Of a DNA stretch of 6,521 nt, positions 180 through 3,947 are shown one piece after another (the stretch's first letter is position 1; every line of letters begins with the position of its first letter). Location: positions 1 through 6,521 of the forward strand of contig QNFD01000162.1 in NCBI GenBank assembly GCA_003645435.1, written 5' to 3'. This DNA is from Gammaproteobacteria bacterium (GTDB lineage: Bacteria; Pseudomonadota; Gammaproteobacteria; GCA-001735895). The notes beneath the pieces are model-generated. The model had not been told where the DNA came from, made no database searches, and saw only the letters and a program-made list of their open reading frames with translations. The position numbers and the translations under genes are program-made.

Positions 180-271
180 CTCCCTCGCCCCCCAGGGGAG
201 AGGGCAGGGGTGAGGGGGCAATCTAAAGGCATCCCCCTCATCCCAGCCTTCTCCCCTCAAGGGAGAAGGAG
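180..271. repeat. GC-rich paired inverted repeat (REP/BIME-like or small MITE-like dispersed element)
   Basis: Two C/T-rich to G/A-rich arms, about 180-219 and 232-271, are imperfect reverse complements around a short AT-richer centre (about 220-231). Each arm also folds on itself. The left arm pairs 182-191 with 195-204 (one mismatch). The right arm pairs CCTTCTCCC (247-255) with GGGAGAAGG (261-269) perfectly across a five-base loop. This CCCTC...GGGAGAGGG style of element is familiar as a dispersed extragenic repeat in many proteobacteria; I do not assign a named family. It lies between the rpoH terminator and whatever lies to the left, the usual place for such elements. Confidence 0.75.
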
Positions 272-310
272 AAAATATATCCAGATGGTTGAATTACATT
301 TCTTCAGAGC

Positions 311-342
311 AAAAAAAAACACGGCTTATAGCCGTGTTTTTT
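311..342 (-). terminator. Intrinsic terminator of rpoH (bidirectional)
   Basis: CACGGC (320-325) pairs with GCCGTG (331-336) across a five-base loop (TTATA), and the stem extends through A314-A319 paired with T337-T342. On the minus strand the hairpin is followed by the T run complementary to A311-A319. It begins about 20 bases beyond the rpoH stop codon, so it is well placed to end rpoH transcription. The plus strand also has a T run after the stem, so it could terminate a convergent gene from the left. Confidence 0.92.
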
Positions 343-363
343 AAAACTAATGACCAGGGAATG

Positions 364-1230
364 CTAGGCCACAAATGTCGCTTTAATTGATTTGAACGCG
401 TTCTTTTCAATTTGCCGAATACGCTCGGCAGAGACACCATATTCATCAGCTAACTCATGCAGCGTGGATTTTGAATCACTTAACCAGCGCCGGGTAACAA
501 TCGCTTTGCTGCGATCATCCAGTAGTTCCAGTGCTTCGCTAAGATGTTGGTGATTTTGCTGCTCGGTATCATTCATTTCAAGCGTTAATTCAGGCGACTG
601 TGTGCTGGAAACCAGCGTGTTTTCGGGCGCCAGGTAACTAGCGTCGTCATCGTCGTCACTACTCATGTTGAATCCAATATCATGGTTGTTGAGACGATTC
701 TCCATTTCCATGACATTTTCTTTCGTTACGCCCAGGGTTTCAGCGACGTGTTCGATTTCTTCCGGCTTAAACCAGCCAAGGCGTGTTTTTTGACTGCGCA
801 ATTTAAAAAATAACTTACGCTGCGCTTTGGTCGTGGCAATCTTGACGATGCGCCAGTTTTTCAGGATATATTCGTGAATTTCAGCCTTGATCCAGTGTAC
901 TGCGAAAGAAACCAGACGTACGCCAACTTCGGGACGAAATCGTTTCACCGCTTTCATCAGGCCTATATTTCCTTCCTGGATTAAATCGGCGATTGCGAGG
1001 CCGTATCCGCCATAGTTGTTGGCAACTTTAATGACGAATCTTAGATGTGGCAGGATTAGTTTCTGTGCTGATTCGAGGTTACCGGTTTCCTGTAAATCGG
1101 TTGCGTACCGCTGTTCTTCCTCAAGCGTTAAGATAGGTACACTCCGCGCCGCACGCATGTACGCCTCCAGATTCGAGGTGCCGAGAAGTACCGGCAGTGT
1201 GTTACCTGTATTGACTAGTTCTGTGCTCAT
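364..1230 (-). CDS. rpoH: RNA polymerase heat-shock sigma factor sigma-32 (RpoH)
   Basis: Alternative sigma factor that directs core RNA polymerase to heat-shock promoters (chaperones, proteases). The 288-residue length is normal for RpoH (E. coli 284). Region 2 is clear: the core-binding segment DLIQEGNIGLMKAVKRF (82-98) is followed by the region 2.3/2.4 stretch with VSFAVHWIKAEI (107-118). The diagnostic RpoH box, QRKLFFKLR (137-145), separates it from RpoD and other group 2/3 factors. An acidic run D192-D196 lies in the linker before region 4. The C-terminal helix-turn-helix of region 4.2 is at about 255-283 (ELADEYGVSAERIRQIEKNA). The ATG is supported by GAGG at 1239-1236, five bases upstream. 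It follows the ftsX/receiver genes on the same strand after a 164-base regulatory gap with a CIRCE operator, and it ends at an intrinsic terminator. Identification is secure. Confidence 0.98.
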   Translation of the reverse strand: MSTELVNTGNTLPVLLGTSNLEAYMRAARSVPILTLEEEQRYATDLQETGNLESAQKLILPHLRFVIKVANNYGGYGLAIADLIQEGNIGLMKAVKRFRPEVGVRLVSFAVHWIKAEIHEYILKNWRIVKIATTKAQRKLFFKLRSQKTRLGWFKPEEIEHVAETLGVTKENVMEMENRLNNHDIGFNMSSDDDDDASYLAPENTLVSSTQSPELTLEMNDTEQQNHQHLSEALELLDDRSKAIVTRRWLSDSKSTLHELADEYGVSAERIRQIEKNAFKSIKATFVA

Positions 1231-1249
1231 AGTGTCCTCACGTATGTTT

Positions 1250-1276
1250 TTAGCACTCTAACTGTTCGAGTGCTAA
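1250..1276 (-). promoter_or_regulatory. CIRCE operator (HrcA binding site) in the rpoH leader
   Basis: A perfect match to the classical CIRCE inverted repeat, TTAGCACTC-N9-GAGTGCTAA, with arms 1250-1258 and 1268-1276 and a spacer of exactly nine bases. It ends 19 bases before the rpoH ATG, a typical position for CIRCE relative to a controlled gene. HrcA is the dimeric repressor that binds CIRCE at normal temperature and is kept active by GroEL. By position only rpoH (minus strand) can be the target, since the receiver gene upstream is transcribed in the same direction and ends at 1395. hrcA itself is not in the window. Regulation of rpoH by HrcA is inferred from this site. Confidence 0.92.
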
Positions 1277-1279
1277 ACA

Positions 1280-1306
1280 TTAGAGCATAAATTATAGTAG
1301 AAGTTC
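1280..1306 (-). promoter_or_regulatory. Candidate sigma-E-type promoter of rpoH, overlapping a sigma-70 -10 box
   Basis: Reading toward rpoH, GAACTT (1306-1301) is followed after exactly 16 bases by TCTAA (1284-1280). This agrees with the GAACTT-N16-TCTGA pattern of sigma-E promoters, with one mismatch in the -10, and has the same layout as the sigma-E promoter (P3) of E. coli rpoH as I recall it. A perfect TATAAT (1296-1291) lies inside the spacer and could serve sigma-70, although no good -35 sits 16-18 bases above it. A sigma-E start would fall at about 1275, in the first CIRCE arm; a sigma-70 start at about 1284, just before it. Bound HrcA would block both. Confidence 0.5.
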
Positions 1307-1337
1307 AAGCTTTATTATAAGTTTATTAACAAATATT

Positions 1338-1366
1338 AATATAGGTTTTAAGCGTCGGATTTCAAG
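1338..1366 (-). promoter_or_regulatory. Candidate distal rpoH promoter (sigma-70 or sigma-32 type)
   Basis: Reading toward rpoH, CTTGAAA occupies 1366-1360. As a sigma-70 promoter it reads TTGAAA-N16-TATATT (-10 at 1343-1338), five of six matches in each box. The same DNA also reads CTTGAAA-N14-CCTATAT (1345-1339), which resembles the sigma-32 pattern CTTGAAA...CCCATNT with one -10 mismatch and would allow self-activation. The two readings overlap and cannot be separated by eye. Either would give a leader of about 100 bases containing the whole CIRCE sequence. Confidence 0.35.
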
Positions 1367-1394: not shown

Positions 1395-2222
1395 TTATGG
1401 GTTTAAGGCTTCGTTTTGACGTTTGATATTTACCAGGGTTTCGATGCGTTGAAGCAAATCGGATTCGTCGACTGGTTTGGTGATAAAGTCATTAGTGCCG
1501 GCGCCAAATATGCCGGTAAAATCAGTTTTTTCGTCGTCGGCCGGCGCTATCGTCATTAGTAACGCGGGCAAGGCCAAATAGTCAAGTTTGAGTTCATTGC
1601 GCACGGTTTGAATAAGCTCATATCCATTCGTTGCACTGGACAACATTGAGTCGGTAATCAGGACATCAACGGTACAGCTGTTATTTCTGGTTATATCCTG
1701 TTTCAAATATTCGAGGGCGTTTCCCGCATCGTTGAAATGTCTGAACTGAATATCATTTTTATCCATTATTGCATTCGTAATTGCGGTCGAAGTCGCGCCA
1801 TTGTCGACGTATACGATTTTAACCGGTAGCTCCGAGTCCTTGCCGAGAAAATTAAGAATGAAATTCACCAGTGACTGGTGCCCCTCGGCCTTGTCAAAAT
1901 AGGCAGTAACCGCCCTGCTATCATCCATATCATCCCCAAGGATTCGATTCTCAGGATCACCGGAAATTACAAAAATTGCTGTATCCCGGTTTTTAGCCGA
2001 CTTACGAATATGATCGATGAGACTGTATCCATCCATATCGGGCAAGGTGATGCCCGTGGTGATAATTTCGAATTCGAATTGCTGTACAGCCGTGCGCGCT
2101 TCCCTGGCGGTCCCGCAGGCGATAATATCCAGCCCGGGCATTTGTTTTAAAATTTCCTGGTACAAAATAGTTCTGGCCGAGTCCGACGAGTCTATCAATA
2201 ATAGGCGGCGTTGTTTGAACAT
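1395..2222 (-). CDS. Tandem receiver-domain (REC-REC) response regulator without output domain
   Basis: 275-residue cytoplasmic protein made of two CheY-like receiver domains, about 5-127 and 134-268. REC1 has LLLID (7-11) and retains Ser87 and Lys111, but the phospho-acceptor position in the ITLPDMDG strand-loop is Gly57 (four residues before Pro61), so it is probably not phosphorylated. REC2 has VYVDN (Asp140), acceptor Asp191 in LITDSML, Thr224 and the Lys249-Pro250 motif, so it looks phosphorylatable. No DNA-binding, GGDEF, HD-GYP or kinase domain follows, so output would be through protein contacts. The ATG lies 24 bases after the ftsX stop, in the same reading frame; AGGAG at 2241-2237 lies 14 bases before it, a long spacing, so translation may depend partly on coupling to ftsX. 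No other in-frame start exists between the ftsX stop and this ATG. No specific family name or partner kinase can be given. Confidence 0.88.
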   Translation of the reverse strand: MFKQRRLLLIDSSDSARTILYQEILKQMPGLDIIACGTAREARTAVQQFEFEIITTGITLPDMDGYSLIDHIRKSAKNRDTAIFVISGDPENRILGDDMDDSRAVTAYFDKAEGHQSLVNFILNFLGKDSELPVKIVYVDNGATSTAITNAIMDKNDIQFRHFNDAGNALEYLKQDITRNNSCTVDVLITDSMLSSATNGYELIQTVRNELKLDYLALPALLMTIAPADDEKTDFTGIFGAGTNDFITKPVDESDLLQRIETLVNIKRQNEALNP

Positions 2223-3209: not shown

Positions 3210-3947
3210 TCACCAGTTTCCCGGGCGGAATTCGTGAGCTTGCCCTGGCTTGAATTCTGCCGAATCATGGTCTGGCAGCTTACCGTCGAGGTCATTGTAG
3301 ATCATTTTTCCCTGATTCAGAGTAAGTACCGGCTTCGCCAGTTCATCAATCAGGTTGAGGTCGTGGCTGGCGACCAGTACCGATACGCCGACCTGGTGAA
3401 AATCGATAAAAATTTGCATGATTTCGCGTGATAGTACCGGGTCCAGGTTACCGGTCGGTTCATCGGCCAGGAGTAGCATCGGCTTGTGAACCACCGCCCG
3501 TGCTATGCCCACGCGCTGTTGTTCTCCGCCGGAAAGCGTTATTGGCATCGATTTTTCCTTGCCGAGCAAACCTACTTTGTCGAGTGCGGCGCGAGTTCTC
3601 TTTGCGATCTCCTGATGGCGATATCCCTGAATAATTAAAGGCAATGCGACATTGTCGAATACGGGACGATCAAACAGAAGCTGATGGTCCTGAAAAATAA
3701 TGCCGATGTTACGCCGTACATAGGGAACTCGATGCCTGGCTATGGTTTTCAGATTAATCCTGTTCAGCAACGCATGTCCGCGTGTCGGCTTTTCGATCAA
3801 TGAAATGATTTTTAGCAGGGTGCTTTTACCGGCGCCGGAATGGCCGGTGAGAAACGCCATTTCACCTGCTCCCAGCTGCATAGACACGTTACTGAGTGCT
3901 TCATGACCACCGGGGTATCTTTTCGTAACGTGTTGAAACTCGATCAT
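3210..3947 (-). CDS. ftsE: Cell-division ATP-binding protein FtsE
   Basis: ATPase subunit of the FtsEX complex at the septum. Counting from the ATG at 3947 it has 245 residues. Motifs are Walker A GHSGAGKST (35-43), Q-loop Gln86, ABC signature LSGGEQQR (138-145), Walker B LLLADEP (158-164) and H-loop His195. The N-terminus MIEFQHVTKRYPGG is the standard FtsE start, so I prefer 3947, seven bases after the ftsY stop. An in-frame ATG at 3971 would add eight residues and overlap ftsY by 17 bases. Neither start has a clear Shine-Dalgarno sequence, in keeping with translational coupling. The C-terminus carries roughly 25 polar residues (ending in EFRPGNW) beyond the usual end of the family (E. coli 222). 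Confidence 0.97.
   Translation of the reverse strand: MIEFQHVTKRYPGGHEALSNVSMQLGAGEMAFLTGHSGAGKSTLLKIISLIEKPTRGHALLNRINLKTIARHRVPYVRRNIGIIFQDHQLLFDRPVFDNVALPLIIQGYRHQEIAKRTRAALDKVGLLGKEKSMPITLSGGEQQRVGIARAVVHKPMLLLADEPTGNLDPVLSREIMQIFIDFHQVGVSVLVASHDLNLIDELAKPVLTLNQGKMIYNDLDGKLPDHDSAEFKPGQAHEFRPGNW

What the first reader, a model, noticed from the sequence alone, without database searches (positions are those of the whole stretch)
1250..1276. Perfect CIRCE element in front of rpoH: the heat-shock sigma factor appears to be under HrcA control
All 18 arm bases and the nine-base spacer match the classical CIRCE, and the element sits in the rpoH leader 19 bases before the ATG. CIRCE/HrcA normally represses groESL and dnaK operons directly. 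Here the repressor would act one level higher, on the sigma factor, so loss of HrcA activity on heating could release the whole sigma-32 regulon. In E. coli, which lacks HrcA, rpoH is controlled instead by RNA thermosensing and by chaperone/protease feedback. I cannot say whether this arrangement has been described in related genomes.
Basis: partly seen in the sequence, partly recalled or inferred. Interest (0 to 1): 0.75.

Follow-up and report, generated by a model that had tools for sequence, protein, structure and literature searches.

The report
HrcA operator inside the rpoH promoter
A textbook binding site for the heat-shock repressor HrcA sits on the promoter of the gene for the heat-shock sigma factor, and the same arrangement recurs in many related bacteria that carry HrcA, which suggests that one heat-shock control system is stacked on top of the other.

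Summary
In detail: a perfect CIRCE lies at 1250-1276, 19 bases before the rpoH ATG. It is not peculiar to this genome. Of 191 rpoH leaders read (window included), 128 have a CIRCE with at most 3 mismatches; a reversed-pattern control never fell below 5. Presence tracks hrcA: 119 both, 55 neither, 8 and 8 discordant, of 190 genomes. The window's genome is not held, so its hrcA is inferred from its three nearest relatives, all with hrcA and rpoH-CIRCE. Their second CIRCE is at groES; hrcA-grpE-dnaK has none, but a sigma-32-like block before dnaK. The new part: the rpoH CIRCE overlaps promoter elements. In 74 (strict) plus 16 (relaxed) of 128 leaders a sigma-E-type -35 puts its -10 inside the CIRCE. 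The window's clade has TTGAACT and TATGCTCTAAT just before the CIRCE, 4 of 4. Most likely HrcA occludes rpoH transcription and gates sigma-E/sigma-70 input. A CIRCE before rpoH was reported for Geobacter sulfurreducens in 2004 (PMC545781), so this is a new variant of a known kind. Binding and expression are untested.

The parts
1250..1276 (-). CIRCE (HrcA operator), perfect 9-9-9 palindrome
   Evidence: 0 of 18 mismatches, only match in window; 16 of 18 arm bases invariant in the 4-leader alignment (5' arm 7 of 9, 3' arm 9 of 9) while the 9-base spacer varies
1279..1289 (-). TATGCTCTAAT: composite -10 (extended -10 sigma-70 type; TCTAA at 1280-1284 also fits a sigma-E -10)
   Evidence: invariant in window and three nearest relatives; sigma-E-like pair TGAACTT-N16-TCTAA in window. 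Element type inferred from recalled consensus
1301..1308 (-). TTGAACTT: -35-like block (TGAACTT fits sigma-E with one mismatch; TTGAAC 4 of 6 for sigma-70)
   Evidence: TTGAACT invariant in 4 of 4 leaders. Consensus recalled
1236..1239 (-). GAGG, Shine-Dalgarno-like block
   Evidence: invariant in 4 of 4 leaders
364..1230 (-). rpoH, sigma-32, 288 aa
   Evidence: TIGR02392 and NF005143 above cut-off
314..342 (.). 13-bp perfect inverted repeat with T-rich end just after rpoH, likely intrinsic terminator
1395..2222 (-). upstream neighbour: protein with response-regulator receiver domains
   Evidence: PF00072, 2 stretches

Best explanation
The element is an HrcA operator that overlaps the transcription start region of rpoH. 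At normal temperature HrcA, whose activity depends on the GroE chaperonin (recalled from B. subtilis), sits on the CIRCE and blocks the promoter just upstream. That promoter (TTGAACTT and TATGCTCTAAT) fits a sigma-E type and an extended -10 sigma-70 type at the same time. When heat or unfolded protein takes HrcA out of action, rpoH and groESL are derepressed directly and other heat-shock genes, dnaKJ among them, follow through sigma-32. So HrcA gates sigma-E/housekeeping input into rpoH. Shown: the site, its conservation, its place next to a conserved promoter-like footprint, and co-occurrence with hrcA in other genomes. Inferred: that the window's genome has hrcA and rpoE, which sigma factors read the promoter, the start site, binding, repression and heat release.
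For: Perfect CIRCE, the only match in the window. 128 of 191 leaders have a CIRCE with at most 3 mismatches within 400 bp; reversed-pattern control never below 5. hrcA x CIRCE: 119 both, 8 hrcA only, 8 CIRCE only, 55 neither, of 190. Nearest relatives G439, G344, G233 have hrcA, rpoH-CIRCE, groES-CIRCE and rpoE (16 of 16 genomes tested); the hrcA of G439 is an equivalog over cut-off. In the 4-leader alignment the long invariant runs are TTGAACT, TATGCTCTAAT, most of the CIRCE arms and GAGG. 91 of 128 CIRCE leaders have GGAACTT (at most 1 mismatch) within 60 bp upstream, against 10.7% of shuffles. A12, the last base of a sigma-E -10 set inside the CIRCE, is present in 67 of 74 strict register-A leaders against 8 of 44 groES CIRCEs.
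Against: The window's own genome could not be searched. Promoter types rest on recalled consensus; the tool's sigma-70 scan did not pick this promoter and its one hit elsewhere is at chance level. Eight genomes have the CIRCE without a detected hrcA (six assemblies of 1.7-2.9 Mb, two of 3.4 and 4.0 Mb) and eight have hrcA without the CIRCE. 22 of 128 CIRCE leaders show no sigma-E-like -35 in either register. An A+T-rich block at about 1322-1343 is also shared by three of the four aligned leaders, so the promoter footprint is not the only similar stretch. With phylogeny controlled, only 6 well-supported independent pairs exist: on average 4.0 agree and 0.1 disagree, median p 0.125.
Confidence: 0.8

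Rival explanations
1. The palindrome acts mainly as an RNA hairpin in the rpoH leader (mRNA stability or a thermosensor), not as a DNA operator.
For: The strand folds into a 9-bp hairpin. Arm changes are strand-biased: A3 to G in the 5' arm alone (keeps a G-U pair) in 38 of 128 rpoH CIRCEs against 1 of 128 for the mirror change T25 to C alone; in groES 7 against 0 of 44, with 2 of 44 carrying both; at the arm ends the bias is weaker (G27 alone 11, C1 alone 5).
Against: The predicted start sites fall inside or after the CIRCE, so most transcripts would not carry both full arms (inference). The GAGG block is outside that hairpin, and the leader folds only modestly better than shuffles (z -1.71; 10 of 200 shuffles as good). 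Presence tracks hrcA, which an RNA element would not need. For rpoH, promoter overlap explains the bias too (TTGGCA is a better -35 for TAANAT; inference).
Confidence: 0.07
2. A relic: the site was inherited from an HrcA-bearing ancestor and no longer works here because this genome has lost hrcA.
For: The window genome cannot be searched; 8 of 127 CIRCE-bearing fetched genomes have no detected hrcA.
Against: The site is perfect although the spacer and much of the leader have diverged from the nearest kin. Of 63 fetched genomes without detected hrcA, 55 have no CIRCE at up to 3 mismatches, so relics do not seem to last. All three nearest relatives have hrcA.
Confidence: 0.06
3. HrcA binds, but rpoH transcription comes mainly from elsewhere (read-through from the upstream receiver-domain gene or a distal promoter), so the effect on sigma-32 level is small and translation or stability control dominates, as recalled for E. 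coli.
For: No terminator-like site was found in 1150-1500, and a sigma-70-like hit lies at 1338-1365, minus strand (0.9 expected by chance).
Against: The promoter footprint next to the CIRCE is invariant among the four closest leaders, and a sigma-E-like -35 recurs in two fixed registers in 87 (strict) of 128 leaders.
Confidence: 0.2

Closest known systems
CIRCE before rpoH in Geobacter sulfurreducens (PMC545781, Table 8; passages read)
   Same: Perfect CIRCE arms, 51 bp before the rpoH start; groESL also under CIRCE; predicted HrcA control of rpoH
   Different: Deltaproteobacterium; there hrcA-grpE-dnaKJ also carries a CIRCE, while in the window's three nearest relatives it does not; the passages read describe no sigma-E promoter overlap
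Classical HrcA/CIRCE regulon (groESL, dnaK operons; B. subtilis type, recalled)
   Same: Operator sequence, spacing, position near the transcription start region
   Different: Target is the sigma factor gene; dnaKJ would be reached only indirectly
E. coli rpoH P3, sigma-E-dependent promoter (recalled, not read)
   Same: sigma-E-type -35/-10 with 16-bp spacing before rpoH
   Different: E. coli lacks HrcA (control); in many CIRCE-bearing leaders the -10 is embedded in, or abuts, the operator
[quoted passage not shown] seen only as a cited reference)
   Same: By its title it covers the same regulons and classes; it may already list rpoH as a CIRCE target
   Different: Content could not be read

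Membership tests
CIRCE / HrcA operator | TTAGCACTC-N9-GAGTGCTAA arms and spacer length | tested here: met
   0 of 18 mismatches
CIRCE / HrcA operator | lies in the promoter/leader of a heat-shock gene | tested here: met
   19 bases before rpoH ATG, adjoining a conserved promoter-like footprint
CIRCE / HrcA operator | hrcA in the same genome | tested here: inconclusive
   window genome not held; 3 of 3 nearest relatives have it
CIRCE / HrcA operator | conserved in relatives and absent where hrcA is absent | tested here: met
   119 both and 55 neither, 8 and 8 discordant, of 190; phylogeny-controlled test underpowered
CIRCE / HrcA operator | HrcA binding and heat derepression | not testable with these tools
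   needs gel shift and expression data
sigma-E (RpoE) promoter | GGAACTT-like -35, 16-17 bp, TCnnA -10 (consensus recalled) | tested here: met
   window TGAACTT-N16-TCTAA, 1 mismatch in -35
sigma-E (RpoE) promoter | rpoE in the genome | tested here: inconclusive
   window genome not held; 16 of 16 CIRCE-bearing genomes tested, the three nearest relatives among them, have TIGR02939 over cut-off
sigma-E (RpoE) promoter | sigma-E-dependent transcription | not testable with these tools
   needs start-site mapping or in vitro transcription
RpoH (sigma-32) | equivalog score | tested here: met
   TIGR02392 392.7 bits, cut-off 323.1

The most novel reading that the evidence does not exclude
Across much of the Gamma- and Betaproteobacteria that keep hrcA, the rpoH promoter is a single overlapping promoter-operator of about 60 bp in which a sigma-E -10 (and often an extended -10 sigma-70 box, TGCTAANAT) is written into the CIRCE itself, so that envelope stress (sigma-E), GroE status (HrcA) and housekeeping input are integrated at one DNA element before sigma-32. 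The E. coli arrangement (sigma-E promoter, no CIRCE) would be what is left after loss of HrcA.
Probability: 0.5. Interest if true: 0.68.

Novelty: new variant of a known kind. Interest (0 to 1): 0.5.

Why it matters
The two bacterial heat-shock strategies (HrcA repressor and sigma-32) are usually described as parallel. Here they look stacked: HrcA over rpoH, sigma-32 over dnaKJ. Because E. coli, the model for rpoH control, lacks HrcA, a layer that is common among the relatives sampled here would be missing from the textbook picture. The overlap with a sigma-E-type promoter makes a direct test possible of how envelope and cytoplasmic stress are combined at rpoH.

Tried and rejected
Chance palindrome: rejected. 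Isolated oddity of one genome: rejected. RNA hairpin as main function: kept as a weak rival; the strand bias of arm changes (38 against 1 in rpoH, 7 against 0 in groES; at fewest 15 changes of state, either direction, on the quick RpoH tree of 111 rows, of whose 108 inner branches 37 are starred) looked at first like G-U pairing, but promoter elements overlapping the CIRCE explain it at least as well for rpoH; for groES it stays unexplained. sigma-54 reading of TTGGCAC: considered by eye on a few spacers only, not counted. Matching of operator variants inside the Xanthomonad-type genomes: rpoH sites are TTAGCAGTC..GACTGCTAA-like, groES sites of G005 and G028 carry part of the same changes, and the hrcA leaders of G005, G028 and G002 gave no site within 4 mismatches: suggestive only. 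L002 (Xanthomonas pisi), 5 mismatches, is no better than the reversed control and was counted as CIRCE-negative. Plasmid collection search of the leader: no match. A phylogeny-controlled test of hrcA/CIRCE was underpowered.

Literature: 10 searches; one held papers have both HrcA and rpoH, of which 40 were listed. For most I saw title and start of abstract only. Passages were opened in 8 papers; of these only PMC545781 reports a CIRCE before rpoH. Permina and Gelfand 2003 and a PLoS Biology paper asked for by a DOI recalled as the sigma-E regulon study are not held, so prior report in gamma/beta cannot be excluded.

groES: 50 genomes searched, 45 with a match, 47 matches; 46 leaders read (30 loci and 16; one partial match of G056 left out), 44 with a site at up to 5 mismatches. 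Register classes A and B were defined after seeing the profile, and the relaxed members (16 and 3) by a looser -35; the A12 and T30 checks did not enter the classification. The sigma-32-like scan allowed mismatches and returned 15 hits in L263-L265; the three cited are those directly before dnaK; no shuffle control was run for it, nor for the 31 of 63 sigma-E-like pairs in CIRCE-negative leaders.

Full report
The finding. A perfect CIRCE lies at 1250-1276 and is the only match in the window at up to 3 mismatches; shuffled controls gave none. It is read on the minus strand, 19 bases ahead of the ATG of a gene at 364-1230 that scores over the cut-off of the RpoH equivalog model. The neighbours are a receiver-domain protein, ftsX, ftsE, ftsY, rsmD, coaD and a YfhL-type ferredoxin, a gammaproteobacterial-looking chromosome segment (inference). 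No whole genome is held for the window, so everything on its hrcA is by inference from kin.

Conservation. I read 190 rpoH leaders from other genomes: 80 loci with record titles, the 30 best of 369 genomes of one class, and the next 80 of the same list. Counting the window, 128 of 191 have a CIRCE with at most three mismatches within 400 bases: 66 with none, 44 with one, 12 with two, 6 with three. The other 63 have 5 to 9; the one at 5, Xanthomonas pisi L002, is no better than the control by count. The same scan with the pattern reversed never fell below 5. The nearest relatives found, L081, L082 and L083 (RpoH 85, 77 and 71% identical), have 0, 1 and 2 mismatches. The sample was chosen by likeness to the window's RpoH, so 128 of 191 is not a rate for the class.

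Link with hrcA. PF01628 was sought in the same genomes. Of 190 genomes 119 have both, 55 neither, 8 hrcA only and 8 the CIRCE only. Of the 8 with CIRCE only, six are assemblies of 1.7 to 2.9 Mb and two of 3.4 and 4.0 Mb, so missing contigs are possible but not shown. The plain association is strong, but genomes are not independent. On an RpoH tree of 111 rows only 6 independent pairs on well-supported branches differ in hrcA; on average 4.0 agree in CIRCE, 0.1 disagree and 1.9 do not differ, median p 0.125.

The regulon in the nearest relatives. G439, G344 and G233 each have two CIRCEs at up to two mismatches: one at rpoH and one at groES. The fetched stretches around hrcA (L263-L265) have no site within 5 mismatches; they hold hrcA, grpE and dnaK, in L264 and L265 also dnaJ, and in L263 dnaK is cut by the contig end. 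In all three a CTTGAAA-N-CCCTAC block, which fits the recalled sigma-32 consensus, lies between grpE and dnaK (the scan gave 15 hits in all and had no shuffle control). G439's HrcA is an equivalog over cut-off. So in this clade HrcA would act directly on groESL and rpoH, and on dnaKJ only through sigma-32.

The promoter. Aligning the four closest leaders leaves these long invariant runs: TTGAACT, TATGCTCTAAT, 16 of the 18 CIRCE arm bases (5' arm 7 of 9, 3' arm 9 of 9), GAGG and the ATG; the CIRCE spacer has diverged. An A+T-rich block at about 1322-1343 of the window is shared by three of the four. In the window, TGAACTT-N16-TCTAA (1301-1307 and 1280-1284) fits a sigma-E promoter with one mismatch, and TATGCTCTAAT also fits an extended -10 for sigma-70; both readings rest on recalled consensus, and the tool's sigma-70 scan did not pick the site. 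Over all 128 CIRCE leaders, 91 have GGAACTT (at most one mismatch) in the 60 bases upstream, against 10.7% of shuffles, and 74 hits sit 9 or 10 bases before the CIRCE. That spacing puts the TC of a sigma-E -10 on CIRCE positions 8-9 and its A on position 12. Position 12, which was not used to define the class, is A in 67 of 74 strict and 16 of 16 relaxed members, but in 8 of 44 groES CIRCEs and 10 of 38 other rpoH CIRCEs. A second register, used by the window (13 strict and 3 relaxed of 128), puts the -10 just before the CIRCE; 22 of 128 show neither. In addition T at the third base after the CIRCE (TGCTAANAT, an extended -10) is present in 119 of 128 rpoH but 2 of 44 groES CIRCEs; the window itself lacks it. 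Leaders without a CIRCE also often have a sigma-E-like pair (31 of 63; no shuffle control for these), in line with the recalled sigma-E promoter P3 of E. coli rpoH. rpoE is present over cut-off in 16 of 16 genomes tested, the three nearest relatives among them.

Mechanism. The best reading is steric repression: HrcA on the CIRCE covers the predicted start region and hides either the -10 (register A) or the start site (register B, window). Loss of HrcA activity would free rpoH for sigma-E and sigma-70 polymerase. Shown are sequence, conservation and association; binding, start sites and expression are inferred.

Rivals. An RNA hairpin is possible in sequence, and arm changes are strongly strand-biased at position 3 (38 against 1 in rpoH, 7 against 0 in groES) and weakly at the arm ends (11 against 5), with at fewest 15 changes at position 3 on the tree; but the predicted transcripts would lack a full 5' arm, and hrcA tracking would be unexplained. 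A relic is unlikely, as 55 of 63 genomes without detected hrcA lack the site. Weak physiological effect, with translation or stability control dominating, cannot be excluded.

What is known. [quoted passage not shown] Permina and Gelfand 2003, the paper most likely to cover gamma- and betaproteobacteria, is not held. In the held library, searches with CIRCE+rpoH+HrcA (10 papers), HrcA+rpoH (46, 40 listed), rpoE+rpoH+HrcA+promoter (8), sigma32+HrcA+CIRCE (18) and CIRCE+HrcA+sigmaE (7) showed, by title and start of abstract and by the passages opened in 8 papers, no report of a CIRCE fused to a sigma-E promoter of rpoH. Most subscription papers are not in that library, so this is not proof of absence from print.

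Verdict. The CIRCE-rpoH pairing itself has a published precedent and is common among the relatives sampled. The overlap of operator and sigma-E-type promoter is what I would call new, with even odds that it works as read.

Noticed in passing
L042 (Pseudoalteromonas luteoviolacea H33-S) 3671-3697; L262 2208-3152: The only CIRCE (up to 2 mismatches) found in this genome is at rpoH; its groES leader has none (best 8 mismatches), and its HrcA, between nadK-like and grpE-like ORFs, is divergent (TIGR00331 119.9 bits, below the cut-off of 197.2; over the Pfam cut-off). It may be an HrcA with rpoH as its only target.
   Followed up: partly
128 rpoH leaders and 44 groES leaders: CIRCE arm changes are strand-biased: A3 to G alone 38 times against 1 for the mirror change alone in rpoH, 7 against 0 in groES (2 groES sites carry both). 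A symmetric HrcA dimer alone would not explain it.
   Followed up: partly
window 1395-2222: A protein with two receiver-domain stretches and no other Pfam hit sits between ftsX and rpoH; tblastn relatives (E up to 1e-6) lie in 19 of 110 rpoH loci, many of which have short flanks; none was seen in L081, the nearest relative.
   Followed up: partly
L005, L028, L109 rpoH leaders: A CIRCE variant with both arms changed in a matching way (TTAGCAGTC-N9-GACTGCTAA) in L028 and L109, and nearly so in L005; groES sites of G005 and G028 carry part of the same change.
   Followed up: partly
window 181-275: G-rich and C-rich stretch downstream of rpoH that looks by eye like a dispersed palindromic repeat; the inverted-repeat scan of 100-360 listed only the likely terminator at 314-342, so the palindrome is imperfect at best.
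   Followed up: partly
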